Shown one piece after another: positions 10,672 to 53,276 of a stretch of DNA of 64,000 nucleotides. Position 1 is the first letter of the stretch, and the number at the start of each line of letters is the position of its first letter. The DNA lies in NCBI GenBank assembly GCA_026770025.1, contig JAMXDE010000030.1, positions 220,001 through 284,000 of the forward strand, written 5' to 3'. This stretch comes from Craspedostauros australis. Lineage: Eukaryota; Bacillariophyta; Bacillariophyceae; Mastogloiales; Achnanthaceae. The position numbers were made by a program, and so were the translations under genes. Below the pieces are notes generated by a model. That model ran no database searches. It was given only the letters and a program-made list of their open reading frames with translations, and was not told the DNA's origin.

Positions 10672-11437
10672 TCACGGTCATCAGACTTCGATGGTCGCGG
10701 AGAGCAGTGGCACGGAAGGCGAGCACGTCGAAGTGGGGAGCCATGGTTCCGGTGAGAATGAAGCTGCTCATCGTACCCTAGAACTTGTGCATAGGCAATT
10801 GCGACTGAATTCTGATGGAACACAGACAAGAATGAGTACTTACCTCAAAATTGGGAGTGATCAAGTCCGTCAATGAAGTCGAGTGAAGCTGTGTGATAGT
10901 GTTCTTGGGCTATGCATGGTTAATCAATTTAGATGATGTATAGCTCACCCAATTCAGATCTGTTGAAGTCTGAAATTGTGAAAAGATGGGGATGCAATGA
11001 TGTGAACCGATGCTGCGGCAACATGTGTTGCAACACAGCAGTGCATGAAGTGCAGAGCATGAAGTTGTTGTCAAGTTTGCAAGAATGAAGGAGGTTCATG
11101 GCGCCACCAATACCAATCTTGCTTCTTGGAACAACATTGATGCTTGCAACAAATCCGATCATTGCAGAAATGCAATCTTGCCAAATTTGATGGGATTGAT
11201 GAGCTTGTATCTGAGCCAAGATGCTTAAATACATTCACTCATCAAGCCAGTAGGCATGCCCTGTGAAGGTGGATTCGCAGGGATTCAGACATACATGTTC
11301 ATGTGCACATAAGGAGGATGATAGGTAGGACCTGACGCCCATCCTTCAACTCATTATCATCTTCAGGCACCAAGAAAGGTATCTGAGGGCCGTCGGGAGT
11401 TGCGGGAAATGAGGCCAACAGAGAAAGAGAAAACGGT
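10672..11437. other. Intergenic, no gene supported
   Basis: Only short open frames without family features. It lies between two copia pol fragments on the same strand and may be old LTR or internal sequence of either. Confidence 0.4.
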
Positions 11438-18240: not shown

Positions 18241-18508
18241 ACCACCAACAATCACCAACAATCACCAACAACCACCAACAACCACCAACAACCACCAACA
18301 ACCACCAACAACCACCAACAACCACCAACAACCACCAACAACCACCAACAACCACCAACAACCACCAACAACCACCAACAACCACCAACAACCACCAACA
18401 ACCACCAACAACCACCAACAACCACCAACAACCACCAACAACCACCAACAACCACCAACAACCACCAACAACCACCAACAACCACCAACAACCACCAACA
18501 ACCACCAA
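18237..18508. repeat. 10-bp minisatellite ACCACCAACA, about 27 copies
   Basis: Nearly perfect decamer array; only two early copies carry ATCACC. It is open in three forward and several reverse frames, giving Thr/Asn/Pro/Gln and Trp/Leu/Val/Gly repeat peptides that have no other support as genes. It ends exactly where the copia LTR begins. Confidence 0.96.
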
Positions 18509-18509
18509 C

Positions 18510-22537: not shown

Positions 22538-25500
22538 CTACCATCCCATGAGCTTGGATCGAAGACGCTCGAACGCGTCTCGGGCAAGCCCCTTTGTGAA
22601 GATGTCCGCGATCTGAACCGGTGTTGGAACGTGGAGAATGCGGATGAAGCCTTCCTTGACCCAGTACCAAAAGAAGTGCCACTTCGTCAAGAAGTGTTTG
22701 GTTCTTGATGTCACCTTGTGCTGCGTGGCCAGTGCGATGCATGCCTCATTGTCCTCAAACACGGTGCATTGGATGTCTGTTTTGAGACGCTCCTCCATTT
22801 GCGTGGCGGCTGCCACTTCGCGAATCAGCTGTTGGATCGGAATGAGAGCTCGCATGGCGAGTGATAGAGCTGCGTACTCAGACTCCATGGTTGATAACGC
22901 AATTTCTGTTTGCAGCTTGGATTTCCAAACGAGCGGGCAACCTCCCAGCACCACGACGTAACCAGTTCGGGACCGCACTGCATTGGGTGACTCGTGCCTC
23001 CCTCTTATATAGCCCAGCGAAGTCGGCATCCACATAGCATTGGAGGTCGAGCTTCCCAGTTGGCTGTACGATGGTTCCTTGTGTTCTGGTTTGCTTGAGA
23101 TAGCGAACGATCATCTTCATGGCCTTTGCGTGGGGTTGTCGTGGATCGTTGCTGAAGCGAGCAACTTGAGACACCGCATAGGCCAGATCTGGTCGAGTGT
23201 TGGTAGTCAGATAAAGCAACATGCCAACGATGGACTGGTAGTTCCAGCTCTCTTTCATGGGTGGTGAATCAAGACAAGCTCCCAAGGCGAGTTGTGTTGT
23301 TGGTACAACATTCGGATTGCAGCTTTCCATTCCAGTTGCCGCGATGATCTTGTCGATGAGCCCTGTTTGTCGCAGATGAATGGTTCTGTCCTTTGGATTC
23401 CTCGTGAGCTGGATCCCAAGGAAGTCCGAGAAGGTACCTTCTTGGGTCAGTTCGAACCCTCGTCGTCGCATGGAAGCAATGACCTGGTCGGTTTCTGCTT
23501 GTGTGCGGGAGGCGATTCCGGCATCATCCACATATAGCACTACCATCATGCCTGGACGAGTGAACAAGCATTTCTCGTGATCACACGCCTTGAAACCTTC
23601 CGCTGTGAGTGCTTTGATGAGATGCTCATACCACAGCCGAGGTGCAATGGTCAGTCCGTAGAGGCTCTTCTCCAGCTTCAAGCATGTGTTCGGTCCTTTG
23701 GACGAGCGAAATTCCCGTGGTGGATGAAGGAAGACTGGCTTGTGGATTCGAGCTTGGACGAAGGCGTTCGTGAAATCGATGGAGGAGGTCACCCAGCCGA
23801 GAAGCACAGAGACCATGAGGAATACTCGGACGGAAGGCCAAGCTACCACGGGTGCGTAGGTGCTGGCATCCTCGGACATGAGGTCACCTCTACAGCACCA
23901 TCTCCCTTTGTACTTCTTAACGGATCCGTCTGGTAGGCGCTTGCGGCGGAAGACCCAGGTGCCTGGATAAATACGGTCGGTGGCTTGTTCTTTTGGTATC
24001 TCTACCCAGGTTCCCTTGCTGGTGAGATCGTTGATCTCCTTCTGTGCAGCTTCCATCCATCTTCCTTTGTTGTCGTCGCGCATAGCTTCGTCAAATGTGA
24101 GGGTGTCTGGATCCGATTTGGATGCTTTGAAGGCACCAAGGTGTTCAGAGATCGTCCAGTGTCCATTCACAGCAAAGAAAGCCATGATGTCGCTGTCCAC
24201 ATATGTGGATGCAGGAAGAGAAAGACGGTTGGTGTAAGAAGTGTGTGAAGCAGCTACATTAGCATGATGTTGCTCATCCTCGTCGCTATCATTTTGGTAG
24301 TTGTTTCCTTTGTGCTCGCCTGTGGATGCTTTGTCATTTGCATCCTCCTCGTGTTCGTTGTCATGGAACATACCAAGCTCCCACATAATAGCGTGTAGAG
24401 CGTCGGCAGCCTCCTCATGAGTACGAACAATGGCTTGGATGCTGGCGAGGCGTTGGTCGATTTGTGCCATGGTGAAGCAAGGTGGTGGCGGCCAGTAGTC
24501 GCTCGCCATTGCAGCTTCTGCATTCACCAATCCATCAGGTCCTCTTGGGTATGCCGACAGGAAGTGTAGGTATTCCATCGGTAACTGAAGACGTTCTCCT
24601 GCGATCACATTGTCCATTGTGATCACAATCAATTCCAGGGCATGGCAAAGAGTGCGTTGCTGGTACTCTTCGGACGGAAATGGAATCTGGAGCGTCTGTG
24701 TGAAGAACTCGTATAGAGCATGTTGGATGAGTGTGCGGAAGGCCTCAGTTGGCATAGAAGGGCGATCCTTGTTGTCGTTGCTGTCTTCGTTTTCCAAAAT
24801 CTGAGCGAAGTGTTGTTGTTCGTTGTTTTCCGCTTGTTCCGTTTCGTGCTCAACTGCCGCTCGAATTTCCAGCTGTTGCACGCGCAGAAATCGCTCCATT
24901 TCCAGATCACCAAGGGCCCATGCTCTGTCTTGAGCACTGATGGTGTGAGTTGGTTCGTTGAGAGCGGGGATGGAAGCGCGCATATCGCGTAGGGTGTGGA
25001 GCGAAGAAGCGACGAACCCATTGAAGCGAGGGGTGCCACGGTCGCGCTGTTGCTCGAACGTCTCGATGCACGTGCCCAAAGCGTCATCCAGCTGGGATGA
25101 TGGGTCCGTATTGGCTGGGGCATCGTGATCGGTGTGTTGGGTTACGACGGCAGGAAAGGCGTGCTCGGTAACGAGTGCACCGTCGTCTTCGTCCGTCCAT
25201 GCAACACGTCCTCCCAATTCGTCGTAGTTGAGACGTTGCGGGGCCTTTCGTTCTCTTTTGCCTTGCGCACGAATACGAGCAGATCGTCGAGTAGGAGCGG
25301 CGTCTTGCTTGCGTCTTGGCTGGCGAAGAGATGATGGAGGTGGCTGTGACGGCGAGGATGTATGAGATGGCGAATGTGGCGGCGATGGCAAGGGTGGCGA
25401 ACGCTTGGATGGCGTTGGTTGCAGATCGCTTCCTTCTTGTGGCGTGACGAAGCCATCTTCGACGGTATCGTCGTCAGGATGCATGGCCACATCTTCGTTG

Positions 25501-27947
25501 TTGGACTGGAGCGATGGATCTCGCGTCGGTGGCAATGGCGATGATGGCGGAGGGCTGCGAGCGACTGCTGGTGTTGTGGACGGGCGTGGAGGAGCGGACA
25601 TGTCTCCCTCTGTCGAGGGCATGCCAGGCTCCTCTCCCTCTGTCGATGGTAACGGCAACGACATCACCGATGGTGTTGGGTTGCTAGCCACTGGTGGTGG
25701 CTGTGACCGTGGCAGCGATGTGTAAGTTGGTCGCCGTGAGCTTCCTTGCTGTTGACTGATTCTTGTGGTTGTGTGCTCCGTGCTGGATGGAGCACGCTGC
25801 ATTCGGTGTGAGGAGGGAACATGGTCACTGCGGACGTCATTTCGACGCAAGTGATCGTGCTCCTGTTGTTCGGCTTCGGCGCTCTCTTGTTGTTCCAACT
25901 CGATGAGGTCGTCCTCATCGAACGGATATTGGTATGTGGTGTCACCGAACATCCGTGTCCATTGTTCTGTGTTATAGTCCGGTAATTGGTTGGAGCTGGT
26001 TGCAATGGTGGCAAACCAGTCATCGAACACCACATGAAACTGCAGTGTAATGGAGCCGGTTCGTGGAGAGAGAACGAGTGGTACCGTTGATGCGTGTCTG
26101 GGTGACAGTCCCATGTTGACGTACCGCTCTCCTCGCGGCTCCCATCGCGGGATTTTTCGTCCGTCGGCCAGCGCCTTGTTAAGAACATACACAGGACAGC
26201 CCCAAACATGCAAGTTGTGCAATTGCTTGAGAGGAATGCGCAAACGAGAGAGGATGTCAAGTGGAGTGAGACCGGTTGTGTGATTTGGTACACGATTGTA
26301 CATATATGCGGCGTGCACAACCGCCATTGGCCACAACTGAGCATCGAACATCTCAGGCCAGTGGATGCTCTGATGCATCATCATGATCCTTGCCATGGAG
26401 ACAATAGTTCGGATGCTTCGTTCTGCGATGCCGTTGTGATGGTGAGCTCCCACTCCCGCAAACCGATGGATCTGGTTGAATTGTTCGAGATGCTTGGTGT
26501 ATTTGGGTGATGTGAAGGTTGTTGCATTGTCAGACAGATACGATCTGACAGGCACACCGACATCATGGCACACGACTTCGAACCTCTGCTTTGCCTCCAG
26601 TGTTGCATGGGTTGTCAATGATGCGACAGGTTCCACATGAATGTATCCAGACGCATGGTCAACAAACATCGCACCCCCTTTGTACATTTCGGATGCATCA
26701 GCTTTTCCTCGTCCAGAGAAGAGACGACCGGGTGTTCGCCCAACGAAGTGATCGACAGAAACCTGTTGACCTGGGAAGAGGTGGTCAGTTTTAAGGACGC
26801 CTTGACGATCGCGAATGATGTGTTGGGTTGTACCTGGTGTAGCACGTCTGTGTTGCTTTCCGAATTGGCAGGCTGCACACATAGGTAGGTGCTGTAGTCT
26901 TGCAGCAGCGGTGTGGAGCTTGCGGGTGGATTCGGAGTTAGACAGAGTACCTGAGCGAAGGAGGAACTGTACTCGTCGAAAGGAGAGATGGGCGAGTCGG
27001 TAATGCCAGCGTAGGAGCTCCTTTTGTGGCTCCGAGAGGTTGGTGTTGTGAGTGGCGACTTGTGTGACGACGGATGTTAGCACTGAGGGTAGGTCTTGGA
27101 TGTCCTGAAGTCTATATGTGATGGATGTAGGAAGGTTGCTTGACGGCTTGTGGTGCACTAAGATCGATCCCCTTTTAGGGTCACCTTGGATTCCGCTTAG
27201 CTTGCAGGAGTCTTCCATGAGCGTGAAGGTCTCTCCTGGGTAGGTCTTGAGCAAGCTGGTGGTGCTGAGAAGTCGGGTGGAGGATCCGGGTACGTAGAAG
27301 GCTGGAAGGCAGAGCGTGCGAGGTTGTCCTGTCGTGTCCAGGATGGTCCAGTTGACGGTACCCAAGATGTTGACCTTGGTGCGGTTGAGAAAACCGCTCA
27401 AGAACGTCGTACGAGCTGGTGCCTTGGTCTTGCCCACAAAGTCGCATTTGTCGTTGGTGATGCTAATGGAAGCTCCACTATCCCACACGACCTCAAAAGG
27501 AGCGTCATTGGCCAGGGATTGCTCTGCTTTGGTTGGTGAGGCAAAGACGTTGTGAAGTCCGAAGGTGGTTGTGATTAGTTTGTACGCGTAGTTGAGTTTT
27601 CCCGGTATGTGAGACGTGGTCTGATTCGCTCCTGTGGTTGAGGTAGAATTAATTTTCGGTTCAGACCCGTTGACATTTTCGTCGGCGTATTCGTGGGCTG
27701 GAGCAATTAAATCCCATGGATGTTCGTGACGATTGGGACGCGAAGGTGGGCGATGCTGGCTCGAGTGATATTTGTGTTTGGTGGCGAACTTTGACTCACA
27801 TCCATCTCGCTGATTAACACAACCGTACACTTGGTTTCGTGTGAATGATTTTGTGTTTCGCTTGCAACGACGGTTGTTCTTGAGGAATCGCTTGAAGTCA
27901 CCGTTGCCGAACAGTTGATCGTAGAGACTGTCTTTTGGCTTATTAGC
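22538..27947 (-). pseudogene. Near-complete Ty1/copia polyprotein with one frameshift
   Basis: The main frame (27830-22878, 1650 residues) holds almost the whole pol in standard order. A Cys-rich stretch and the protease motif WDSGASISITND come first. A GAG-pre-integrase and H-C zinc region (LLRWHYRLAHLS, MCAACQFGKQHR) follows, then integrase core blocks DHLFPGQQVSVDHFVG, YLSDNATTFTS and GVGAHHHNGIAERSIRT. After a long variable linker come the reverse transcriptase (WVFRRKRLPDGSVKKY, IDFTNAFVQARI, YVDDAG) and RNase H. Near 23000 the frame breaks after the AGLYKRE block; the rest of RNase H (SRTGYVVVLGG, STMESEYAALS, VFEDNEACIALA, IFTKGLARDAFERLRSKLMGW) runs on to 22538 one base out. A gain of one base there explains it. 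A GAG tail continues upstream to a stop near 27945. It is the most complete copia here but not intact. Confidence 0.9.
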
Positions 27948-28374: not shown

Positions 28375-29652
28375 ATGGATGCCGCACATCACATGCTCAC
28401 AATCCTTTTGACAGTCTCATTTGGATTCGTTACAGCTCTAAAGACTAAGATACACAATCATCAACAACCTCGTTCACCTACTGCACTACCACGGATTGAT
28501 CACCCTTCGGCGTTCAGTAAGTTCACCTCGTTTTCATTATCGTTTTATCACCTCTGGTACGAGCACCTGCTCAAAGCATTGCACGCCGAAGGATTCCGTG
28601 CATGTGATCAAGAGCAGTGCCTCTTCATGCGAGAAGGCATGATGATCGTTCTCTACGTGGATGATGCCGGCATCGCTTCCAAGACCGAAGCAGAGGCCGA
28701 CACATTCATCGAATCCATGCGTGCCCGCGGCTTCGAGCTCAAGAAGGAAGGATCATTCACCGAATTCCTGGGTATCCAACTCATCCAAGATCCCAAGGCT
28801 GGAACAGTGCACATGCGCCAGAGCGGACTCATCCAGAAGATCATCGACACCACCAAGATGCAGAAGTGCAAACCAAATGCAACTCCAACCATCCTACAGC
28901 CTCTGGGTGCCGACGAACATGAACCACCCATGGATGAGAAATGGAACTACTGTTCCGTTGTTGGCATGCTGCTTTACTTGGCTACTAACACACGCCCTGA
29001 TATCGCATTTGCCGTCTCTCAACTTGCACACTTCAGCAACGATCCTCGACGCACCCATGCCAAGGCAATGAAGACACTGGTCCGATACCTAGCTGGCACT
29101 CACAACAAGGGAACCATCATCAAGCCTACCGGCAAGCTCCATCTGACCTGCTATGTGGACGCCGACTTTGGTGGCCTCTATCGCAGCGAAGACCATCGAT
29201 CCATCAACGCCGCACGCTCCCGCTCTGGATACGTCATCGAACTTGGTGGCTGCCCTCTCGTGTGGAAGTCCAAGCTGCAGACTGAGATCGCGCTCTCGAC
29301 AATGGAAGCTGAATATGCTGCGCTCTCACAAGCCATGCGTGTTCTGATTCCATTGCGAGAACTGATCAGTGAAGTCTCGCATACAATGAAACTTCCACAA
29401 GACCTTGAGGCTGGCATCAAGTGCACGGTGTTTGAAGGCAACAACGCCTGCATCTCCCTTGCTACGAAGCATCAAGTGACCTCCCGCACCAAGCACTACC
29501 TCATCAAGTTCCACTTCTTCTGGTACTGGGTCAAGAAGGCATTCATCAGCATCTTCTACATCCCCACCAAGGAACAGATTGCGGGCATCTTCACCAAGGG
29601 TTTGCCTTACGATACCTTCACCAAACTCCGTAAGGCGCTCATGGGTTGGTGA
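28375..29652 (+). pseudogene. Ty1/copia fragment: second half of reverse transcriptase and RNase H
   Basis: The frame opens in LTR or leader-like sequence (QPRSPTA...IDHP) and passes directly into LWYEHLLKALHAEGFRACD, the middle of reverse transcriptase, so everything before that was deleted. The remaining part is complete: MMIVLYVDDAGIA, TRPDIAFAVSQLAHF, SRSGYVIELGGCPLVWKSKL, STMEAEYAALSQAM, VFEGNNACISLATKHQ and IAGIFTKGLPYDTF, with a normal LMGW end. It is related to the pol sequences at 8131-10170 and 22538-27947. One conserved acidic pair is changed (EGNNA instead of EDNEA), so RNase H activity is doubtful. Confidence 0.85.
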
Positions 29653-32045: not shown

Positions 32046-32085
32046 ATATCCATAATGATTTTGGCCTGGTACTGGCCTACGTGGC

Positions 32086-32161
32086 TTGTCTCCCCAGGCA
32101 AATTGGAGGTGCAATTTGTCTCCACAGGCAAATTGGGGTGCATTTGTCTCCACAGACAAAC
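32086..32161 (+). repeat. Subterminal repeats at the left end of element Y
   Basis: Three copies of a motif close to TTGTCTCCACAGGCAAATTG in 76 bp, with CCCC for CCAC in the first and ACAAAC at the end of the third. Confidence 0.85.
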
Positions 32162-32664
32162 TGCGACTCAACGGACTAGCCCAAATACGCTTTACGAGAA
32201 GCCGTTTTTTTTTTTCAAACCCTTTTTCGCTGGCCAGGTCGACTCACGACATGCCTCATGTCTTAAATTTATAATAATCGTTGCAGTTGTGGGAATTGAA
32301 CAAACAATGATCATGCGTCATGCGTCACCCTCCTTGTCGTGTCGCACCGTTGCTGTGATTTTGCATTTGCTGTCATCGTGGGTTGATGTTTTCCATGCAC
32401 TCGCACACACCTGTTCCGCAATTTCGGTTGCGTTCACCGTTGCCGGTGGACACTCGCCAACGACATCCACAACCCCGTCGTTTCTCCATCGCACACATCA
32501 CTTCCCCATCTTCCTCCACATCAACACATGTTCAACATGCACTTGCAATCTGTCCATCCCACACGTCGACATGCCAACATTGCAATGACACTGGCTTCTT
32601 CTGCTGTTGCAAAACAGAATTGAAGCATGCCTTCTTTCCAGTTCTCACAAAAATCAACAGCAGC

Positions 32665-35095
32665 GCGCTCAATCACCTTCCGCCCCAGTGATGGAGAGCA
32701 TCATCAATGCGAACAACCCATCACACCAACAGCAGCGTGCTCCATCAACTTCCACCCCAGTGACGGACAGCATCATCAATGCAAACAACTCACAAAACCA
32801 ACAGCAGCGCACTCGATCAACTTCCACTTCAGTGATGGGGAGCATCATCAATGCTAACAACTCACCAAACCAACAGCACCGTGCTCGATCAACTTCCACT
32901 CCAGCGATTGAGAACATCAGCAATGCGCGCAACTCACCAAACCAACAGCAGCATGCCCGATCAACTTCCACTCCAGTGATGGAGAGCATCATCAATGCGC
33001 GCAACCCATCAAACCAACGGCAGCATGCTCAATCAACTTCCACCCCAGCAATGGAGAGCATCAGCAATGCGCACAACTCACCAAACCAACAGCAGCATGC
33101 TCGATCAACTTCCACCCCAGTGACGGGCAGCATCATCAATGCGCGCAACTCACCAAACCAACGGCACCGTGCTCGATCAACTTCCACCCCAGTGGACAGC
33201 ATCATCAACGCAAACAACTCACCAAACCAACATCAGCACACTCGATCAACTTCCACCCCAGCAATGGAGAGCATCAGCAATGCGAACAACTCACCAAACC
33301 AACAGCTGCACACTCGATCAACTTCCACCCCAGTGACGGACAGCATCATCAATGCAAACAACTCACAAAACCAACAGCAGCATGCTCGATCAACTTCCAC
33401 CCCAGCAATGGAGAGCATCATCAATGCAAACAACTCACCAAACCAATGACAGCGTGCTCAATCAACTTCCACTCCAGTAATGGACAGCATCAGCAATGCG
33501 CGCAACTCACCAAACCAACGGCAGCGTGCTCGATCAACTTCCACTCCAGTGACAGACAGCATCAGCAATGCGAGCAACTCAACAAACCAACGGCAGCGTA
33601 CTCGATCAACTTCCACCCCAGTGACGGACAGCATCAGCAATGCGCGCAACTCACCAAACCAACAGCAGCGTGCTCGATCAACTTCCACTCCAGTGACAGA
33701 CAGCATCAGCAATGTGAGCAACTCACCAAACCAACGGCAGCGTGCTCGATCAACTTCCACTCCAGTGACAGACAGCATCAGCAATGCGAGCAACTCAACA
33801 AACCAACGGCAGCGTGCTCGATCAACTTCCACTCCAGTGACAGACAGCATCAGCAATGTGAGCAACTCACCAAACCAATGGCAGCGTGCTCGATCAACTT
33901 CCACTCCAGTGACAGACAGCATCAGCAATGCGAGCAACTCAACAAACCAACGGCAGCGTGCTCGATCAACTTCCACTCCAGTGACGGACAGCATCAGCAA
34001 TGCAAACAACTCACCAAACCAACAGCAGCATGCTCGATTAACTTCCACCTCAGTGACGGACAGCATCAGCAATGCGCGCAACTCACCAAACCAACGGCAG
34101 CACATTCGATCAACTTCCACCCCAGTGACGGAGAACATCATCGATGCGCGCAACTCACCAAACCAACAGCAGCATGCTCGATCAACTTCCACTCCAGTTA
34201 CGGGCAGCATCATCAATGCGCGCAACTCACAAAACCAACGGCACCGTGCTCGATCAACTTCCACCCCAGTGACAGAGAGCATCATCAATGCAAACAACTC
34301 ACAAAACCAACAGCAGCGCAATCGATCAACTTCCACCCCAGTGATGGACAGCATCAGCAATGCAAACAACTCACCAAACCAACAGCAGCATGCTCGATCA
34401 ACTTCCACCCCAGTGATGGAGAGCATCATCAATGCGAACAACTCGCCAAACCAACAGCAGCATGCTCGATCAACTTCCACTCCAGTAATGGACAGCATCA
34501 GCAATGCGCGCAACTCAACAAACCAACGGCAGCGTACTCGATCAACTTCCACCCCAGTGACGGACAGCATCAGCAATGCAAACAACTCACAAAACCAACG
34601 GCAGCGTACTCGATCAACTTCCACTCCAGTGATGGACAGCATCAGCAATGCGCGCAACTCACAAAACCAACAGCAGCGTACTCGATCAACTTCCACTCCA
34701 GTGACGGACAGCATCATCAATGCGAACAACTCAACAAAGCAACGGCACCATGCTCGATCAACTTCCACTCCAGTGACGGACAGCATCAGCAATGCAAACA
34801 ACTCACAAAACCAACGGCACCGTGCTCGATCAACTTCCACTCCAGCAATGGAGAGCATCATCAATGCGAACAGCTCACCAAACCAACAGCAGCATGCTCG
34901 ATCAACTTCCACTCCAGTGACGGACAGTATCATCAATGCGAACAACTCAACAAAGCAACGGCACCATGCTCGATCAACTTCCACCCCAGTGATGGAGAGC
35001 ATCATCAATGCAAACAACTCACCAAACCAACAGCAGCATGCTCGATCAACTTCCACCCCAGTGACGGACAGCATCAGCAATGCGAGCAACAATGG
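32665..35095 (+). repeat. 72-bp coding repeat, about 33 copies
   Basis: Tandem units of 72 bp encode a 24-residue repeat of the type RSTSTPVTDSISNANNSPNQ plus four residues. One unit near 33190 lacks a codon (69 bp). Units differ mostly by substitutions that keep the frame, unlike the non-coding minisatellites in this window. The array forms the N-terminal part of the element Y protein and is rich in Ser, Thr, Asn and Gln, so it is likely disordered. Confidence 0.95.
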
Positions 35096-38000
35096 GCAGG
35101 GTGTCAGCACTGGCGCATTCAGCATGCATAATGCAACACAGGACCCAAATCCACAGTCAGCCACCGCACCTGTTGATGGTGACATCCATCAAGTGTCCCA
35201 GAGTCCACCTCAACATATTTCAGTTGCGCCAAACCAATCCTTGATTGGTGTTGCCACTGGCCTCGGTGTATGCCTCAACAGTGGCGACGACAACACCAGC
35301 AACAACAATGTCAACCACAACAATGTCAACGACAACAATGCCAACACCAACTCCGACAATGATAACAATGGCAATGTTGGCTGCAATATTGACAGCATAA
35401 GCAATGGAGATGACAACGGTAATGGAGATGAAAATGGCAATGATGGCTACCTTGTCACTTTGCCTTCGCAGACTCTCCATGACATCAATGCCTCTGGAAT
35501 CAAAACTATGCCGATGAAGTGGGACCTTCTGCCTTGGCGTACATGCAAATTCTCTGTCTCCGTCAGCGCTGCACAGCGGCTTTGCCACAAGCTCATGGTG
35601 GCTGAGGTTCTTCAGATTCGTGCTCGTGCAGTACTCAACACCAAGAAACACAACCCAACCACAGACGACTTCACAAAGTTTGTCTTCGGAGACCACTCCA
35701 TCATCTTCTCTTCAGCCTTTGGTCCAGCAGGGTTGGGCATGGGGTTCAAGAACTTTGTACAGTTCATGGTTGGCTTCACAACTCAGGCATGCTTCAATCT
35801 GTCGGTGAAGGAGATGTACTCCACCAAAATTCTGCAAACTGGCAGTGGATTTCCAACCAGGGAGGAGTACATGCAGGCATGGGACCTCATTTCAGATGAT
35901 GGTGAAGTACCAGAAAGTGACCGACCAACTTACCTATGGTTCACTCTGGAGAAATGCTGCAATGAAGTCCTCGATCACATGGTGCTACAAAACATGACAT
36001 CCGAGAGGTACATCACCCTTGACGATGACAAAGTCCAATGCGGAAGTCGTGGCAGCAAGAGCAACCTTCGCAGAGTACGACACATCCAAAAAAATCGGTT
36101 TGGGTACGTGTGCGATCATCACAATGGTTGAGTTGGCCGTGTGATTTTGTTTCTCTGTGAAGTTCCAGTCAATTGTATCCATACTCTCAACCTATTTTCT
36201 TTTCTTGCATTCCACTCTCCTTCTATTCTTTCTCAGCCTTGTTGCCAACACAATGGCATTCACCTGTTCGGGTATGCCATGTGGTCTGTTCTGGCTCAGG
36301 AAATCTCAAGGTGGAGACACGAAGTTGACGCTGGATGCCATCAAGCAGCAGCTCGGGAAGGGAATGATGTGGCTGGAGGATGTAACCGTCTTATTCGATC
36401 GAGGCTACAGCTGCGAAGACATAGTCAAGAACCTCATCGAAGTTGGAGCTGATATCCTCAGCACCCACAAGCGTGACGGATACCTCCCATTTGATTTTGG
36501 CCAACGTGAACGGAGACCAAAAGGTCAAATGGATCTTCGGATGAAAGGGATACCGTACGTTTGGATTGCTTCCACTGACAAGATACCAAACAAGGTATTG
36601 ACATTCCATGCCATGAGGGACAACGGAAAGATGGTGGTTGGGGTTGAGACCAAGAGGGGTGGCTTTGAGTGGGACCTGACTCTTGTCAACTTTGCGGACG
36701 AGAAGCTGTACAACAACCTTGTCAACGCTCCTCCTGATGCAGACTTGAGGACGTCTTCCTTTCCCCAATACTTCGTGCCATTTGCCTACAACTATGGTAC
36801 ATCCCATGCAGTGCAAGAAGGAGAGAGGAATTTGGCGCATGCTGATCATCTCTTCCTTGCAGCTGAAGGTGGAGACGAAAGACGAGATGCCATGACCCAG
36901 GTCCACGTTGCCACAGAGGAATTAAGGCACCGACGGGAAGCGACCAAGGCAAGATGGTCGTCACACATCCATGACCTTCAGGTTGAGGGACTGACATGTG
37001 CCCAACGTGACCCACTCTGGTTCATGCTACGGAAGTTCGCACTCACAAGCTCATCAACATACAAGCTCATTTCGACTATTCTTCAATCAGAGGAGTGGGT
37101 TGACAGAGCCAACGTGAGCACCTTCGATATTGCAGCATGGAAGACAGTCGCAGAGTATCTTGGGATCGACCATGACGCAAAATTGGGAGACCTTGATCGA
37201 ACAAAGAAAATGCGGAAGATCAAGGACAGGGCCCATTCGGTGTACAAGGCGCTGACAGAGACCAGCATCGACTCGGCTGCTTTGGAAGAGAAGATGCTCG
37301 ACGCGTTGAGCAAACGTGCAGAATCGGTTCCTGACTCGGACAGTGCCACCAGTGCCTCTCATGAGGATGATTCTGCTCCAGGCAACACACTGTCGGATGA
37401 GCAGATACTGCTACATGCATTACTCTGTGACCACAGTGTGTTGTCTCAAGCAGCAGCTGAGGAAGAAATCCGAGCATTGGTCGGGCTCTTCTATGGTGAC
37501 AACAACTCTCGTGGACTGGGCACGTTGCTATCAAAACTGAAGAAGATCCTACAAATGAAGTGCAAGTTTCATCGACGATACTGCCTCATGACTACAACAA
37601 TGCTGAAATCAATCCACACCAAAAGATATCCAGCATCCAGGAGGGACAAGATCGCTGCTGCAGACCTCCGGAGAATGCTGGTCAAACAAGACCAAGCACA
37701 GCCGTCCGCACCTGCAGACACTTCTCAACCGTGCAACAACAGGAAGGAGTCGGAGGATGCAGGTACCAACAAATACCTGCAGGAGCTGCAGATGCGCCTC
37801 ATGCAACAGGTACTGTCCTCCTGGTATATGAAGCCCCGCAAGGGTGAAGAGGGAGAACCAATCCAGCTCGGGTTGGACAACGAAGACCCTTTGATGGAAG
37901 AGGTGATGACACAAGCCAACATTTGTGGGCCCAACACTCGACTGAAAGCTGCATTCAGTGCTGGGCTGGTGAGGCATCCTGACCAGCCTTATGCTCGAGC

Positions 38001-40520
38001 ATCAGTGGACTTTCTTGCAGTTGTGGGAGAATCTGCCAGTGAACTACAAGAAAAGGTGTTCGTGGTCGAAATGAAAACTCGAGCATCACCAAAGACAGAA
38101 CTGGACGAAAAGGAGTGGCATGCAATGGCAAAACAACGACCTGGTCACCCAATCAACAACAATGCGTTCTTCCCACTGCAGGATGATGAGTTCAGAGCGG
38201 CTTTTTCGAGACCAGAGGAAATGATACAGTTGTTGCATCATTCCTTTGTCTTTGGTGTTCCAAACGCCCTCCTTTGCATTGGTACGTATCTGAGGTGATA
38301 TCATCATTTCCCGTCTTTGCATGAGAATCCACATCACTAACCTCCATCCACTATCTTCACTTGTCATGAAAATCACCTCACAACATTGGATTGCAACGGG
38401 ACGAACTGTGTCACCACATCACAGGCGACACGGCAGCAAAACCAATTCGCACCATTGCAACCAGCTTCAGACCATCACTTCTTGTAGCCTACAGCAGGGT
38501 GCTGAAGGACCTCCACAAAATGGTTCTGGAATTCGCATACTCGGAAACTCCTGTGAGGGGGATGACAGCATCACCATCCTATGCATTGTTGACAAGATTT
38601 CTTGCTTCCATGTCGACACAAGCACCATTTCGAGGGTGTAACGAGGTCCTCGCATCGCTCACAGAGGACGACCTCATGCAGGAGGTACGGAAATGGCAAG
38701 CCTGTCACAAACACCTGAAGTTTCCAGTACCCAAGGTGAAAACCTTCCTGCCCAAGATCTACTCCGTATGGAATTCGTTGAAGGGAGGCTCAGACATAAT
38801 GACCAGGATGATGGAATCACACTCTCCGGACCTGCCCATCCCAACCATGGGCTGCACTGCCGTCTCACGACAGCTGCAAGTCATGTTCATGGTCATTCAC
38901 AAGGTCAGCCAACATGTGGATCCGAATCGGCCAGCAGACAACACTGACGTTATCGAAAGTGACACGCTCGGCCACTACAGGAACAGGGTAAATCAGCGTC
39001 GCAGTTTCCAGCAGACCATGGTGGAAATCAACACGTGCTTCCGGCACATGTTGCAGCGCCTATGCGATGACGACGAGGTCCAACAGGCTGAGGCTGATGG
39101 CAACTATTCTGGCACTATATCAATCCATTGCAAAAGGATCCCACACGGTATACCAAGGCTCTTCGAAGGCAATCCTCCAACAAATTCGAGTCCGGTACAA
39201 CCAGCGGAGCTACGAGGTATCCTTTGCATGAAGGCCACCGCAGATACCCCAAGGCAACACTTGATACGCACCAACATGAAGCAAAGAGAGCACATCCCCA
39301 GGAAGTGCGTCGCCAAACGAGGAACCTGCGTCGTTTGTGCGAATGTGACTACCTGGGTGTGCGCTGGATGCCACATGTTCGTGTGCGCACAGTCGAATGA
39401 GGAAAAGAGGGCATGGATGGAGACACAGGGGGTATCACCTACCCTGGCACTTTGCAATTTCCCTGTGAAGAGTGTGGCAGCAGTGGTCGAGAACACATGT
39501 CATCATCTTCTCCACAGCAACCCAACATTATGGTGTTCTGAAACCAACCTGAACTACACGCAGCGCAATACCAACGAGGAGGTCCGGCAGAAGAAGGCAG
39601 ATGCCCGGGCAAAGCGCGCTACCGCAAGGATCGCCCAACAAGCAGCAAGGCTTGCTACGGAAATGGCTGCAACCGCAGAAGCTGATGCCGAAGATGCATT
39701 GCTTGCCCAGGCCTCTGCTGTTCCTGCATATGGATTGAACACGACTGGTGCAAACATGTCAGATTCTACCGATGGACCAGATGGAGGCAGGGGCGCCATG
39801 GCGCCAGATGCAACCATTCGGATCATGGAGAGGGGAGATCCGGACGTGAACAAGGCAGGGGCAAGGAGAGAGCCCCCCTCTGCGGCCTCCACGCAGAATG
39901 CGCATGCGCTGGGCAGTGACTACCGCAGAAGTGCAACAACCATGGCACAGCAAACGGACAATGAGATACCACCATCAATGACAAACATGTTGGTGCAACA
40001 TACATCGGTCAGAGATAGAAACAGACGGAATGTACTGGAAGGAGACACCGATTGCCAGTCAGTATCGACCAATTCAGCAGCCGGAGATGTACATGTTGGA
40101 GCAACTGTGGTGCAACGATCTGGTTCAAGAATTCGGAAGAGACGAAGAGGAGAACGAAGGATCATCCCAGCAACTCTGGGTCAGACAACATGCAATGCCT
40201 CTTCTTCGCCATTGTCTGTTAGCATCGATCCTCGCTTTGGAAACGGCAACGGTCATCCTGCCACAGCGGAAGGAACTTCAGGAGGAGGACGAACCGAGTA
40301 TGGAGCATGTGACAAAGATGTGATTTTCGTGGATATGAGAAGGGAAGCCCCTGCCTCCATCCATGTTGCTGCCAAGAATTCGACACCAAGTCCAAGCAGA
40401 GGTGCCAATGCAAGAGATGGAAGTCCGAACAGACTATCACACACAATAAAGAAGGAACTCGCGGCAGCCAGGCAGCGTACGAGGAAACGGATGCGAACAA
40501 GAAATGCTAACTGTATGTAA
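33480..40520 (+). CDS. Element Y protein: repeat region, DDE-like core, YqaJ nuclease, zinc-binding tail
   Basis: I read three exons: 33480-36103, 36237-38281 and 38425-40520. Both introns begin GTACGT and end CAG or ACAG, and the phases fit, giving 2254 residues. Exon 1 has the 24-residue repeats, an Asn/Asp-rich linker and a transposase-like region ending YITLDDDKV (about 36010). Exon 2 continues with GMPCGLFWLRKSQGGDT and VLFDRGYSCEDIV (about 36388), giving two candidate catalytic Asp; the third acidic residue is not certain. It then carries a nuclease of the YqaJ/lambda exonuclease type: QRDPLWFMLRKFALTSS (37000), an acidic helix EDPLMEEVM, ASVDFLAVVG (38007) and VFVVEMKTR (38060), that is the D...ExK pattern. 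Exon 3 has a Cys-rich segment with TCVVC and VCAGC (39325-39375). The frame is also open upstream to 32607 except for one TGA at 33447-33449. Confidence 0.7.
36104..36236 (+). other. Predicted intron 1 of the element Y gene
   Basis: 133 bp, GTACGTGTGC at the 5' end, a pyrimidine-rich tract and TTTCTCAG at the 3' end. Removal joins a phase-2 codon and keeps the frame into the DRGY region. Confidence 0.7.
38282..38424 (+). other. Predicted intron 2 of the element Y gene
   Basis: 143 bp, GTACGTATCT to CATCACAG. Removal makes a phase-1 junction and joins NALLCIG to DTAAKPIRTIATSF, the expected continuation of a nuclease-like domain. Confidence 0.7.
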
Positions 40521-41137
40521 GGATCCAGGAATAATGAAACGATGATAAGAATTGATTTGCAAGGAACTCATGTGCCATCAGGAGGAGAGAGAGGATGCAC
40601 TGTTGTCGCCAAGTATTTGTGAAAAGGTGCACCAAAAGCACCAGAATCCGGTGCCGGGATTGTGAAGGAGACAGTGCCAAAAAACTGATGCATGATGAGA
40701 AGCACGACAAGCATGTTGGTGGATGCAGGTACCAGACATGGAAATAGCAAGGTAGAATATGATTACCCCAGATCCCATGACGTCGAGAAAGCAAGTCAGG
40801 CGCACGGAAAGGAACCCCTGAGACATGACCAATGACGCCGTGCTGCATCGCGACGTTTTTTTTTTTTAAATCGCCAAATAAATGAGTTACTCGAAGGAGT
40901 CAGAAAAAAAAAACAACCCACTTTCGGGTTTCGGACCGAAATCGGGTTTTTTTTTTTCTGCAACACGGGACATCGTGGAGGAATGTGGGACTTAAGTAGT
41001 ACGTTGCCATTTTCGGCGACCTTCCGTTTGTCTCCACAGGCAAATGGGGGTCGATTTGCCTGTGGAGGCAAATTGAGACTTCAATTTGCCTGTGGAGACA
41101 AGCTACGTAGAGTTTGTCTCCACAGACATGAAAACCC
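40521..41137. other. 3' non-coding region of element Y with subterminal repeats
   Basis: No gene. It has three A or T runs of at least nine bases near 40856, 40903 and 40948. From 41026 to 41128 there are copies of GTCTCCACAGGCAAATTG in both orientations, matching the left-end repeats at 32086-32161. Confidence 0.75.
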
Positions 41138-41150
41138 TCATTATGGATAT

Positions 41151-49889: not shown

Positions 49890-52800
49890 TTACAGGTACC
49901 GGCCACGCCCATAACGCTGCGCGAATGCCAGATGGTCCATGTCAAAATACGATGTCCCATCTTCATCGTCTTCTTGGTCGAAACCCAGCAGGGTTGCCAT
50001 GTCCTCCAATCCCACGTATCGTATGTTATCCTCCAAACCGTGATCCGGTGCATCGTGGAACGGCATTTCTTCCCACAATTCGATCTCGGTCGGTGGGGGT
50101 GGACTCTTCTGCGGGTTGAGATTCCAGGTCGTGTTCAGTGGCCTTGGGCCGAAATGATTCCTCCGCAGTCCTCGTCGGAACGGGAGGGGTCTGATGCGAA
50201 CGGAGATCAGGGATCGATCGTCATCATCGTCGCCATCGTTACCGTCCGCGATGTCTTCCGACACCTTGGCACCGCCAGCCATGTTTTTCTCTGCGCGTCT
50301 GCGACGGCGGAGGGCCGTCTTCAGACCTTCTCGGATCTTGCTCATGTTGATGGGCGGCGGCTTTTCGCCGCGGGTGTTGTCGTTGAGTTCCCGAGCGATC
50401 TTGAGGTCGCGTGCCCAGAACGGGCTCTTCTCCGTGGTCGGTGCCACCTCCTTGATTTCGAACATGATGATCCCGGCAGCCCAAATACAGACAATGTTGA
50501 GAACCGTCAAGGAGAATGAGATGGCGCCGATTTCGGCAAAGTCTCTGGCATCTTTGCCGCTGTTGGACGTGGTTGCGCCAGTTTCGAGCATGATGGCGTA
50601 GACCCAGCAGATTCCGGAGTTGACTGCCGGCGGCAGCAGAGAGGCTGAGATGGCGACGCCCACGAGACTGCTGGTGTTGCCACCCAGAATACCCAAGCAA
50701 ACTCCCATGCCGGAAGGAATGGCGATGGCGATACCAGTCAGCAACCCGGTCGTCTCCCCTCGAATCTCCATTTCGTTGGTCGGCCAGTCATCGTCTGCCA
50801 GTTTGGTGAAGGCAGATGATGCACCGACCAGCGCACCCACCACGACGCACCCCAGCAGGGCGAGGCATTCGTTGAACAAGGATGCCCTCACAAGCGGCCA
50901 GTCTTTGATCCGGCTTCCGAAGGTCAACCCCAGCACCGGCCCCATGATCGGCGACACCAGCATACTCGCAACGATCACCACCGTGTTGTCCGTAATCAGT
51001 CCAACTCCAGCCAGGATGCTGGCGATGGTCAGAAGGCTGATGAAATCAAAGGAGAATGCTGCCTGCTCCACGATCTGTTCCCGCACCTGTTCGATGCGCA
51101 ATCGTGTCGCGGCATTCTTCCACTCGGATCTGGCCGCCTCGATCATGCGTTCATTCCGGATCCGCTCGGCTTCCTCGGCCTTTTCACGATCCTCAGCTTC
51201 ATCGATGGCCTTGTCGGTCGCCACCTTCAGGGAAACACCACCGAGAGACATGTCGTCAGCTTGCGTGAGGCTGCCGATGGTGGACATGTCTTCTGCTTCG
51301 CGTTGTTGCTGGAGCTGCTGTTCATCTTGCTCCTTGATGTGCGCGTAAGGAGAAGCGGTCTTGCAAAGCTCCATCTTGAATATGGAGACCGTGCCGCACA
51401 TGATACCAACCCCGATACGCTCCAATCGTTCGAGAACGATGCCGAGGGAGCTGTTGCGGACCATCACCTGAAGGGACATCCAATTGCCTTCGTCTTGTCG
51501 CTGATCCTCGCTGCTGTAGGTGTATGGGTTCACCAGGTCCGTGGGGAGCTTCTGATGATCGACGAAGGCGACGGTGGGGACGTTGAGCAAGTGCCATTCT
51601 CGAAGGAGGGTGTCGAAGGTGATGCGCAACAGCTCTTCCATGTTAATCTCGTTCTCGTCCGGGTGTTCGCCGGGCGTGACAGCGGCCGCCTCTTCGGGAG
51701 TGACCTTGCGATCTTCAATGCTGTTGCCCACCAGGTCGCCTTGGTCTTCGTCTTCTCCTTCTCCGTTTCCTTGAGTTTGGTTTTGACCTTGGTCATTATG
51801 GGCAATGCCGCCTAAATCATCACTGTAGGGTGGGAAATGGATCTGTTCGACTTCTTCGTTGACAGAAACCTTGGCGTTTGATTTGGTTTCTTCCTCTTGC
51901 GCTGATGGGGGTTGAATGGATATTGCTTCGCCGTTGCTGTCGCTGCCACGTTCGCCACCAGTTTGATTTGGTGGATTGAGAGCCGTTTGCTGCTGAGTTG
52001 GCAGAGTGTCAGATTGGACGGGCGTGCTGGGTTCATGTTGGGACTTGAGGTTGGTTGGATCATCGGGTGCTTGCAGAGTATTGGGCGTGGCTTCGATGAT
52101 GGTCTTCATGCGTGTCATTGCCGCAACATTGTTGGATGGCAGTTGAAGGTCAGGGGCAGGCAAGGGTGGCATCATGAGGTCTGTGGAATCGTCGCCAACA
52201 TCGAGCACCTGTTTCTTCGTTTTGTTTCCAACGCGTGGGGTTGCTTCCGTTTCGGAAGTTATCGTGATGGAATCTTGACTGGTCTCCTTGACGATGGTCT
52301 TGCGTTGTGCAATGGCTGGAGGTGTCTGAGGTTCATGAAATGGGACTGCGTCGGTTGCGGCTCCAACAGAGATATTTGCAGCTGCCGTCGAAGAGGCCAA
52401 AGCAGCAGAAGTAGCGTCGGTGGATCTGTAAGAGACATGGTTCGCGGCATCCAACTTGAGAGGAACGATTTCGGATGGTTGATCGTCCATATCTGCGGTC
52501 GTTCCAGCTGCTGCAGCAGCTCCCGTTAGTGTACGAGTAGGTTCCGACGTTGCAGAGTTGGGATCATCGGAGGGAATGGATGCTGCGGCATCCGCCATGC
52601 CAACATCGCTGTAGGTGGACTTTCTCAGAATTCCCTTGACTTCGGACTTCGGCTTTGGGTTGGTTGCTGTTGCTGTTACCGATTCCGTTGCTGCCAATTC
52701 CAATCCCAATGCCAAGTCTGCAGGTTGCGATGGTGGCGGTGGCGGTGGCTGCTTCGTTGCTTTATTTGTCTCATGGGCTTCGTTGGCACCATCTGCACCT

Positions 52801-53276
52801 GGTGTGGGCTGATCGCTATTGACCATGCTAGTCTGAGGAGGGTCGTCGGGGGCTTCGATCGTCACTGTGTGACCAATGCGCCGTGGGCAGATGACAGATA
52901 CCATGAGCGCCTTTGTCGTGGAGGTAGGCCCTTCGATGTTGGGCATCGCGGCCGCAAGGAGCATAGCACTGGACTCTTTGCGTTTGTGCCTGGAGCCTGG
53001 ATTGGATAGAGTTTGCGGTGGCGTGGAAGACACGCCGGAGTACTGCTTCTGCAACTTGTGGTTGCTTGCCCCGATCATCCTGCCACCCATGCCCAATCCG
53101 ATGCTCACTATCGGATCAGGCTTCGATGCCACCGCGCCGGTAGAAGCAGCTGTCGACGCAGCTATGGACGCGGCTGTGGACGCATTGGCAAGAGGGTTCT
53201 CCGCCGTGTTGCTCCGGGAACGAGGCATGGTGGTTGTGTTCTGGTGTCTGCGAATGTTATCCGAGCTTCCATGCAT
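49890..53276 (-). CDS. DUF389 membrane protein with long disordered N-terminus, 1128 aa
   Basis: Single open frame from ATG at 53276 (a second ATG lies at 53228). Residues 1-500 are low complexity, rich in Ser, Thr, Ala, Pro and Gln. Around residues 560-670 a folded part appears (FDTLLREWHLLNVPTVAFVD, VMVRNSSLGIVLERLERIGVG). The DUF389 membrane domain follows at about 770-960: FDFISLLTIASILAGVGLIT, VVIVASMLVSPIMGPVLGLT, NECLALLGCVVVGALVGASS, ASLLPPAVNSGICW and a final helix with LNIVCIWAAGIIMFEI. The central PIMGP and LLPPAVNSG blocks are typical. The family is found in bacteria and algae, and its biochemical function is not established. The gene is convergent with the EamA gene, 198 bp apart. 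Confidence 0.88.
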   Translation of the reverse strand: MHGSSDNIRRHQNTTTMPRSRSNTAENPLANASTAASIAASTAASTGAVASKPDPIVSIGLGMGGRMIGASNHKLQKQYSGVSSTPPQTLSNPGSRHKRKESSAMLLAAAMPNIEGPTSTTKALMVSVICPRRIGHTVTIEAPDDPPQTSMVNSDQPTPGADGANEAHETNKATKQPPPPPPSQPADLALGLELAATESVTATATNPKPKSEVKGILRKSTYSDVGMADAAASIPSDDPNSATSEPTRTLTGAAAAAGTTADMDDQPSEIVPLKLDAANHVSYRSTDATSAALASSTAAANISVGAATDAVPFHEPQTPPAIAQRKTIVKETSQDSITITSETEATPRVGNKTKKQVLDVGDDSTDLMMPPLPAPDLQLPSNNVAAMTRMKTIIEATPNTLQAPDDPTNLKSQHEPSTPVQSDTLPTQQQTALNPPNQTGGERGSDSNGEAISIQPPSAQEEETKSNAKVSVNEEVEQIHFPPYSDDLGGIAHNDQGQNQTQGNGEGEDEDQGDLVGNSIEDRKVTPEEAAAVTPGEHPDENEINMEELLRITFDTLLREWHLLNVPTVAFVDHQKLPTDLVNPYTYSSEDQRQDEGNWMSLQVMVRNSSLGIVLERLERIGVGIMCGTVSIFKMELCKTASPYAHIKEQDEQQLQQQREAEDMSTIGSLTQADDMSLGGVSLKVATDKAIDEAEDREKAEEAERIRNERMIEAARSEWKNAATRLRIEQVREQIVEQAAFSFDFISLLTIASILAGVGLITDNTVVIVASMLVSPIMGPVLGLTFGSRIKDWPLVRASLFNECLALLGCVVVGALVGASSAFTKLADDDWPTNEMEIRGETTGLLTGIAIAIPSGMGVCLGILGGNTSSLVGVAISASLLPPAVNSGICWVYAIMLETGATTSNSGKDARDFAEIGAISFSLTVLNIVCIWAAGIIMFEIKEVAPTTEKSPFWARDLKIARELNDNTRGEKPPPINMSKIREGLKTALRRRRRAEKNMAGGAKVSEDIADGNDGDDDDDRSLISVRIRPLPFRRGLRRNHFGPRPLNTTWNLNPQKSPPPPTEIELWEEMPFHDAPDHGLEDNIRYVGLEDMATLLGFDQEDDEDGTSYFDMDHLAFAQRYGRGRYL

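What the first reader, a model, noticed from the sequence alone, without database searches (positions are those of the whole stretch)
32046..41150. 9.1-kb transposon encoding one giant protein with DDE-like and YqaJ-like nuclease domains
Seen: inverted ends ATATCCATAATGA, one three-exon frame of about 2254 residues, two candidate DDE aspartates (LDDDK, FDRGY), a separate D...ExK nuclease with the QRDPLWFMLRKFALTSS entry block, and a Cys-rich tail. Known: YqaJ/lambda-exonuclease domains recombine DNA in phages; from memory, ISL2EU-type eukaryotic transposons carry a YqaJ-type protein next to a transposase. Inference: here both nucleases and the zinc tail are fused in one polypeptide, which could couple cutting to end resection or repair. 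I know no described element with exactly this architecture.
Basis: partly seen in the sequence, partly recalled or inferred. Interest (0 to 1): 0.85.

Follow-up and report, generated by a model that had tools for sequence, protein, structure and literature searches.

The report
Transposase with built-in exonuclease-like domain
This is a recently mobile DNA transposon of an unidentified eukaryote whose single very long transposase appears to carry a second, phage-exonuclease-like DNA-cutting domain lodged inside its own cutting domain, which could change how the gap left by a jump is repaired.

Summary
The element is real: 32050-41146, flanked by duplicated ATAT. Its empty insertion site occurs elsewhere, exact 4 times, with one ATAT. 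Nine copies hold the coding region; exon 2 is 2045 nt and open in 9 of 9, under purifying selection. Families 27-35% identical share both introns, same phase, in 8 of 8 loci each: one protein. DDE nature shows after splicing (Pfam DDE_Tnp_1 above cut-off in 2 of 7 segments). A four-sequence piggyBac profile supports this (0 of 300 shuffles); a single one does not clearly, and bacterial IS4 matches around D2. The nuclease matches lambda-type exonucleases at its entry block (0 of 300); its catalytic residues are invariant, but the core match is weak. ISL2EU membership fails; piggyBac membership is not met (ATAT not TTAA; PF13843 below cut-off). No relatives in the protein and viral searches run. 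Verdict: new variant, an IS4/piggyBac-type transposase with a nested YqaJ-like nuclease.

The parts
32046..32049 (.). target site duplication, left copy (ATAT)
   Evidence: single ATAT in 4 exact empty sites of this insertion; ATAT at 30 of 30 left ends read
41147..41150 (.). target site duplication, right copy (ATAT)
   Evidence: empty site
32050..32058 (+). left terminal inverted repeat CCATAATGA
   Evidence: 64 left ends with up to 2 mismatches
41138..41146 (-). right terminal inverted repeat TCATTATGG
32086..32158 (.). left subterminal repeats, type S (TTGTCTCCACAGGCA and variants; starts 32086, 32116, 32144)
41028..41128 (.). right subterminal repeats, type S (starts 41028, 41057, 41087, 41114)
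32651..35090 (+). 72-bp tandem array (33.9 units, 24-residue unit) encoding a repetitive N-terminal region; in-frame TGA at 33447-33449 in this copy
33480..36103 (+). exon 1 as far as open in this copy; carries D1 (T-L-D-D-D-K, first D codon 36021-36023)
36104..36236 (+). intron 1 (GTACGT...CAG), between D1 and D2
   Evidence: same place and phase with GT/AG in 8 of 8 loci where both sides were held
36237..38281 (+). exon 2, 2045 nt in 9 of 9 copies; D2 (F-D-R-G-Y, codon 36397-36399), then the nuclease
36982..38281 (+). YqaJ/lambda-exonuclease-like nuclease: entry block QRDPLWFMLRKFALTSS (from about 37002), E 37882-37884, D 38008-38010, E-x-K 38068-38076; may run on into early exon 3 (inference)
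38282..38424 (+). intron 2 (GTACGT...CAG), directly after the nuclease core
   Evidence: 8 of 8 loci
38425..40517 (+). exon 3 (stop 40518-40520)
38793..38795 (+). proposed D3 (K-G-G-S-D), aligned with the GGVD motif of piggyBac
   Evidence: W, N, K, G, G, S, D invariant in 7 of 7 families
39291..39515 (+). C-terminal zinc motif H...CxxC(x7)CxxC(x4)C...C(x4)H
   Evidence: (first H and four C in 7 of 7 rows; last C, C, H in the 6 rows that reach that far)

Best explanation
A cut-and-paste DNA transposon with a single transposase of about 2.2-2.4 thousand residues. An IS4/piggyBac-type DDD catalytic domain (D1 exon 1, D2 exon 2, D3 exon 3) is interrupted between D2 and D3 by a lambda-exonuclease/YqaJ-type nuclease. 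A C-terminal zinc domain, as in piggyBac, would bind palindromic subterminal repeats at both ends; the DDD domain would cut at the CC...GG ends and join them to ATAT, duplicating it. Shown: boundaries, ATAT duplication, copies, open frames, intron conservation, selection. Well supported: DDE fold, single polypeptide. Inferred: closer kinship with piggyBac than with other IS4-type transposases, D3, nesting, binding of the repeats by the zinc domain. What the nuclease does is inference: most likely it processes DNA at the excision site, for instance resecting the flanks so that the gap is repaired from a sister copy.
For: Nine copies with open exon 2 and exon 3. dN/dS in exon 2 is 0.15-0.38 in 33 of 36 pairs. 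Same two introns, same phase, GT/AG, in 8 of 8 loci each. DDE_Tnp_1 above its Pfam cut-off in 2 of 7 spliced segments (26.4 and 24.1 bits, cut-off 23); in L025 DDE_Tnp_1 (17.9) and DDE_Tnp_1_7 (16.4) match well across the exon 1-2 junction. hhalign against a four-sequence piggyBac profile: the full protein gives D1-D2 and D3 as top two hits, collinear; with the nuclease excised, one 263-column alignment, 0 of 300 shuffles as good. D1-D2 spacing 77-81 residues in 6 of 6 families measured against 78 in piggyBac (D268, D346, PMC7351741). Nuclease segment against 10 phage exonucleases: score 33.6, 0 of 300 shuffles; mismatched pairs score 14. E, S-x-D, E-x-K invariant in 9 of 9 rows, 8 families. 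Zinc spacing CxxC(x4)C as in the piggyBac at 57327-59825. Type-G repeats TGCGTCCGGACGCA hold the TGCGT/ACGCA site bound by the piggyBac zinc domain (PMC8086355); similar palindromes (TGCGTCAGGACGCA) occur in family L026.
Against: No YqaJ (PF09588) hit in the 6 members of A1 at E<=1, and PF13843 stays below its cut-off. Excising the nuclease did not bring PF13843 up in hmmscan. Specificity control (run on rechecking): against single sequences the excised alignment scores 26.4 with E. coli IS4 (46 columns around D2, 0 of 60 shuffles) but only 18.6 with the window's piggyBac (265 columns; 10 of 60 shuffles as good) and 19.2 with piggyBat (1 of 60); IS186 20.0 (2 of 60), IS5 19.1 (6 of 60). So DDE of IS4 type is firm, piggyBac as nearest kin is not. 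Exon 3 alone against piggyBac: 5 of 300 shuffles as good. Nuclease core alone: 8 of 40. D1-D2 piece alone: 1 of 40, in another register than expected. hhalign probabilities are low throughout (36% at best). AlphaFold models are poor (mean pLDDT 50.6 and 41.2) and Foldseek lists no nuclease among the 50 best matches shown. A rival third acid (invariant FxWD in exon 2) exists. No RNA data.
Confidence: 0.6

Rival explanations
1. The DDE domain is complete in exons 1-2, with FxWD of exon 2 as third acid, and the nuclease and zinc tail are simply appended downstream (IS4-type transposase fused to YqaJ, no nesting).
For: F-x-W-D is invariant in the 6 rows of A1 and 7 of A7, 92 residues after D2 in the window copy; best Pfam hit is DDE_Tnp_1; the best single-sequence match is IS4, around D2.
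Against: FxWD is not matched to the third aspartate in any piggyBac alignment, lies at predicted strands rather than a helix (low confidence), and would leave the GGSD block without a role although it is invariant and aligns with GGVD.
Confidence: 0.25
2. An ISL2EU-type element (PHIS superfamily) whose two ORFs have fused.
For: ISL2EU is the described eukaryotic DNA transposon group with a YqaJ protein (PMC4482050, PMC9179366).
Against: Target ATAT, not A|AT|T; ends CC, not GG; no THAP or Harbinger-type Pfam hit at E<=1; the bacterial IS5 transposase, taken as a stand-in for this superfamily, scores at chance level (6 of 60 shuffles).
Confidence: 0.06
3. The inserted domain is a catalytically dead, structural or DNA-binding insertion domain, not a working nuclease.
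For: DDE transposases often carry insertion domains at this place (PMC7351741); no activity data.
Against: E, D, E-x-K are invariant in 9 of 9 rows and the W...R...TS entry block in 6 of 6 families that are 29-35% identical over exon 2; selection acts on exon 2.
Confidence: 0.2
4. The three exons belong to two or three separate genes of one element.
For: No RNA data; exons 2 and 3 are each long open frames.
Against: Intron 1 splits D1 from D2; splice sites at the same places and phases in 8 of 8 loci; in L025 the DDE matches run across the exon 1-2 junction, though in the two segments above the cut-off they begin only 3-6 residues before it.
Confidence: 0.07

Closest known systems
piggyBac superfamily (T. 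ni piggyBac, piggyBat; also the piggyBac at window 57327-59825)
   Same: Order D1-D2-D3-zinc domain, D1-D2 spacing, 4-bp palindromic AT-only target, ends beginning CC, TGCGT/ACGCA subterminal sites in type G
   Different: Target ATAT, not TTAA; PF13843 below cut-off; about 750 residues from D2 to proposed D3 against 101; protein of 2.2-2.4 thousand residues against 594 or 832
IS4-type bacterial transposases (Pfam DDE_Tnp_1)
   Same: Best Pfam hit and best single-sequence match, around D2
   Different: Prokaryotic, short, no nuclease or zinc tail; third acid is E (recalled)
ISL2EU (PHIS superfamily)
   Same: DDE transposase together with a YqaJ-type protein
   Different: There two ORFs, AT duplication in AATT, GG ends, found in animals (PMC4482050); here one protein, ATAT, CC ends
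Lambda exonuclease / YqaJ phage recombination nucleases
   Same: Entry block W...R...T, then E, S-x-D, E-x-K in the same order
   Different: Joined to a transposase; long predicted-helical stretch between entry block and core
KolobokP and KolobokD
   Same: DDD/E transposon with an added nuclease (His-Me finger; DEDDh)
   Different: Other nuclease folds and another transposase superfamily; KolobokP is described as encoding a transposase and a small nuclease (abstract of PMC9587614)

Membership tests
piggyBac superfamily | DDE_Tnp_1_7 (PF13843) above gathering score | tested here: not met
   best 16.4 bits against 22.4; not listed
piggyBac superfamily | TTAA target site duplication | tested here: not met
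   ATAT
piggyBac superfamily | terminal motif CC[C/T]T | tested here: inconclusive
   CCCT in copies C7 and C13b, CCAT in the window copy; motif as given in PMC2872659
piggyBac superfamily | DDD triad with D1-D2 of about 78 residues and D3 in YN..MGGVD | tested here: inconclusive
   spacing 77-81; WN..KGGSD aligns but exon 3 alone is weak (5 of 300) and single piggyBac sequences do not stand out
piggyBac superfamily | C-terminal cross-brace zinc domain | tested here: inconclusive
   ligand pattern and spacing fit; no Pfam zinc hit near a cut-off; no structure
IS4-type (DDE_Tnp_1) transposases | PF01609 above gathering score | tested here: met
   2 of 7 spliced segments, 1 clearly and 1 at the cut-off; not the window copy itself
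ISL2EU | AT duplication within AATT | tested here: not met
ISL2EU | separate transposase and YqaJ ORFs | tested here: not met
   (no RNA data)
ISL2EU | terminal repeats usually starting GG | tested here: not met
   CC
YqaJ / lambda exonuclease nucleases | YqaJ Pfam profile match | tested here: not met
   no hit at E<=1
YqaJ / lambda exonuclease nucleases | entry block with invariant W, R, T | tested here: met
   (0 of 300 shuffles)
YqaJ / lambda exonuclease nucleases | E, S-x-D, E-x-K catalytic core | tested here: inconclusive
   invariant 9 of 9 and in register but profile score not beyond shuffles (8 of 40)
YqaJ / lambda exonuclease nucleases | exonuclease activity | not testable with these tools
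   needs bench work

The most novel reading that the evidence does not exclude
A new transposon lineage in which a working 5'-3' exonuclease is folded into the DDD catalytic domain, so that excision and resection are one machine: donor gaps are pushed into homology-directed repair and restored from the sister copy, turning cut-and-paste into copy gain.
Probability: 0.2. Interest if true: 0.87.

Novelty: new variant of a known kind. Interest (0 to 1): 0.68.

Why it matters
PMC4482050 states that the function of the extra ORFs of PHIS transposons, ISL2EU's YqaJ protein among them, is unknown. Here a nuclease of the same type appears to have been joined independently to a different transposase, within one chain and with conserved active-site residues, so its role in transposition could be tested by changing single residues of one protein. 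It would also extend a piggyBac-like mode to an ATAT target, and the two natural repeat types in one genome offer a way to test which residues of the zinc domain read the ends.

Tried and rejected
Relatives elsewhere: three protein searches and one scan of viral contigs with the family alignment gave none. I take these collections to hold few spliced eukaryotic proteins, so absence there is not absence in nature. The bacterial/archaeal genome collection was not scanned. A scan of viral contigs for piggyBac relatives of P0001 also found none. Folding: exon 2 and nuclease core are too poor to use; I draw nothing from the Foldseek search. ISL2EU membership was rejected on target site and ends. 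I first took FxWD of exon 2 as the third acid and preferred GGSD after comparing with the piggyBac in the same window.

Zinc tail as reader of the subterminal repeats: repeat type and tail type agree in 9 of 9 copies (for C13a only the right end was held) and left and right repeat types agree in 22 of 22 short elements with both ends held. But the mosaic (window copy against C16, exon 1 end to about 39100 1-4% apart, tail and both ends mostly 5-27%) can be one conversion tract in the middle, so this is one event, not nine. In one search the 5' row for C2 used a neighbouring short element and is void; C13a is missing from the 5' comparison. Host identification failed: the rRNA search got no answer and was not repeated.
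Full report
Boundaries. The element spans 32050-41146 (9,097 bp). ATAT flanks it on both sides (32046-32049, 41147-41150). The joined flanks GTTACATCGTGC-ATAT-TTTCTACTTTGTTGC occur elsewhere in the 74.8-Mb genome 4 times exactly and 8 more times with 1-3 mismatches. So this copy inserted into a repeated sequence and duplicated ATAT. A second copy (C2) sits in another repeat; its joined site, with two ATAT words whose starts are 9 bp apart and of which it used the second, is found in 15 places with 1 mismatch and 17 more with 2-3. ATAT stands at all 30 left ends that I read, out of 64 found. A 2-bp TA duplication inside an obligatory ATAT cannot be told from a 4-bp duplication. Immediately adjoining copies share a single ATAT (GGATATCC), which speaks against an AT duplication with ATCC ends.

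Copies. The stretch 37000-38090 has 9 matches of 96-100% identity plus 8 weaker ones. The left end has 64 matches with at most 2 mismatches, the backward control none. Of the 30 left ends read, 22 belong to short elements of 634-753 bp with both ends. Exon 2 is 2045 nt in 9 of 9 copies, exon 3 2090 or 2093 nt, and the spliced frame is open from exon 1 to the same stop in all 9; the N-terminal part differs, with predicted proteins of 1483-2426 residues. C2 and C13b are cut short within exon 1; C13a could be read only from near the end of exon 1 and has a large insertion in intron 1. dN/dS in exon 2 is 0.15-0.38 for 33 of 36 pairs; the other three (C62-C2 0.58, C62-C24 0.58, C2-C24 0.72) have few changes. 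In the first 1200 nt of exon 3 the ratio is 0.22-0.39 between subfamilies and 0.18-1.75 between very close copies, on few changes.

One protein. A protein search of the own genome lists 119 matching stretches, many of them in other families. I read seven families besides a degenerate locus (L028): the window's, L025/L027, L026, L059/L062, L060, L061 and L064 (L061 has a stop in exon 1 and one in exon 2; L062 lacks exon 3; L064 is cut by the end of the fetched stretch). They are 27-35% identical to the window's exons. Intron 1, between D1 and D2, and intron 2, directly after the nuclease core, lie at the same places and in the same phase with GT donors (GTAAGT, GTACGT, GTGAGT, GTAAGA, GTAAGC) and AG acceptors in 8 of 8 loci each for which both sides were held.

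The transposase part. Single exons give weak Pfam hits: DDE_Tnp_1 in 3 of 6 members, best E 1.3e-4. Spliced segments give DDE_Tnp_1 at 26.4 and 24.1 bits (cut-off 23) in 2 of 7, 17.9 in a third, and DDE_Tnp_1_7 at 16.4 (cut-off 22.4) in that third; the window's own segment gives none. With the longer constructs the values are 25.1, 23.0 and 16.5 in three and none in the other three. The same window holds an ordinary piggyBac (57327-59825, minus strand, PF13843 171 bits) that matches solved piggyBac and piggyBat. In hhalign against a profile of four sequences (this one, its near copy in L015, piggyBat, piggyBac) the whole family alignment gives as its top two hits, in the right order, residues 152-340 on the D1-D2 part (score 29.3) and 986-1014 on the D3 part (21.1); a third hit (14.8) is at chance level. 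With the nuclease stretch left out they merge into one 263-column alignment (30.5), which 0 of 300 column shuffles reach (maximum 24.6). The gain from merging is small, and exon 3 alone is matched by 5 of 300 shuffles, so D3 rests on collinearity, on the motif WN..KGGSD against YN..MGGVD, and on its invariance in 7 of 7 families. D1-D2 is 77-81 residues (6 families) against 78 for D268-D346 of piggyBac (PMC7351741, passages read). That paper places the insertion domain of piggyBac at residues 372-433, between D346 and D447, the same topological place as in other DDE transposases with one; the nuclease lies in the corresponding interval.

Specificity control. Against single transposases the excised alignment scores 26.4 with E. 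coli IS4 (46 columns around D2, 0 of 60 shuffles as good), 20.0 with IS186 (2 of 60), 19.1 with IS5 (6 of 60), 18.6 with the window's piggyBac (265 columns, end to end; 10 of 60) and 19.2 with piggyBat (118 columns, 1 of 60). So the DDE domain is of the broad IS4/piggyBac kind; that piggyBac is its nearest kin rests on layout (D3 motif, zinc tail, ends, target), not on score.

The nuclease part. The entry block QRDPLWFMLRKFALTSS aligns with lambda exonuclease (E 0.0014, probability 17%) and with ten phage exonucleases (E 3.8e-4, probability 36%); exons 3 and 1 as controls give E 0.5 and 0.55, probability 0.1%; 0 of 300 shuffles reach the score. The core aligns in register at G..E, S-x-D and E-x-K, invariant in 9 of 9 rows from 8 families, but its score is reached by 8 of 40 shuffles. 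TIGR03033 and the RecE-like phrog_434 each hit 2 of 6 members, Viral_alk_exo 2 of 6, none above a curated cut-off where one exists; YqaJ itself is not hit. I hold a lambda-exonuclease/YqaJ-type nuclease to be likely, not proven.

Ends and zinc tail. The tail has one His followed by seven Cys/His ligand candidates, as described for piggyMac- and piggyBat-type zinc domains (PMC8086355, passages read), with the CxxC(x4)C spacing of the window's piggyBac. Six copies carry type G repeats (TTGCGTCCGGACGCAA and close variants), three carry type S (TTGTCTCCACAGGCAA); the zinc loop reads CNIVTPW in the six and CANVTTW in the three. TGCGT/ACGCA is the site bound by the piggyBac zinc domain (PMC8086355). 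Family L026 has the end ATATCCATAGTGA followed by TGCGTCAGGACGCA-type repeats; in the other families held (L025, L027, L059-L062, L064) I found neither such ends nor such repeats in the stretches fetched (one stray match in L062). The link between repeat type and tail is suggestive only, for the reason given under Tried and rejected.

Mechanism. Shown: insertion at ATAT with duplication, mobility of long and short forms, selection on one long protein. Inferred from piggyBac: zinc domain on repeats, DDD cutting, possibly seamless excision since ATAT is self-complementary like TTAA. Inferred without direct evidence: the nuclease acts on donor or target DNA; resection towards homologous repair is my first choice, hairpin or end processing second.

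Known or not. ISL2EU (passages of PMC4482050 and PMC9179366) carries YqaJ in a separate ORF and differs in target and ends. KolobokP and KolobokD (abstract and outline of PMC9587614) carry other nucleases. Searches of the open paper library for YqaJ or ISL2EU (40 of 109 papers listed), YqaJ with piggyBac or transposon (15 of 4,450 listed), exonuclease domain fusions (none), ATAT duplications with piggyBac, YqaJ with transposase (15 of 18 listed), protist piggyBac (10 of 46 listed) and inserted nuclease domains (8 of 19 listed) showed no paper whose title or abstract start describes this architecture. Apart from the papers named I saw listings only; subscription journals and Repbase reports are not held. 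PMC2872659 (passages) describes ordinary TTAA piggyBac relatives.

Limits. The host is an unidentified eukaryote. No expression data. Structure prediction failed, I think for want of relatives.

Noticed in passing
57327-59825 (minus): Ordinary piggyBac transposase ORF of 832 residues (PF13843, 171 bits) with zinc tail; the genome search with PF13843 reports 160 matches.
   Followed up: partly
C2 copy (L013, L014) and its empty sites: The repeat into which copy C2 inserted seems to belong to a piggyBac family: 6 of its 15 one-mismatch empty sites lie about 1.18 kb from a PF13843 match listed (that list is cut).
   Followed up: no
22881-27830 (minus); also 8134-10170, 11441-13498 (minus), 28375-29649 (plus): Copia-type reverse transcriptases (RVT_2), one in a 1650-residue open frame with gag_pre-integrs.
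   Followed up: no
1429-1960, 6618-7474, 10152-10673, 14142-14434, 18237-18509: Long, nearly perfect tandem arrays (99-100% matches, units 5-19 bp); that at 6618-7474 lies within the span of an open frame of the minus strand, 6611-7573.
   Followed up: no
49893-53276 (minus): 1128-residue frame with a DUF389 domain, a possible host gene.
   Followed up: no
L041, L042, L046, L047, L051, L052; copies C62, C16: Elements sit end to end sharing one ATAT, as if ATAT at the end of one copy is a favoured target for the next; some neighbours have ends of another kind, CCCTAATGAG.
   Followed up: partly
C13a copy (L009, L010): Intron 1 is 7359 nt instead of 133-136, holding a large insertion, while exons 2 and 3 stay open.
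   Followed up: no
intron 2, 38282-38424: Intron 2 differs by only 3% between the window copy and C7, against 9% at synonymous sites of exon 2, its 3' half being almost unchanged; it may have a function beyond splicing.
   Followed up: no
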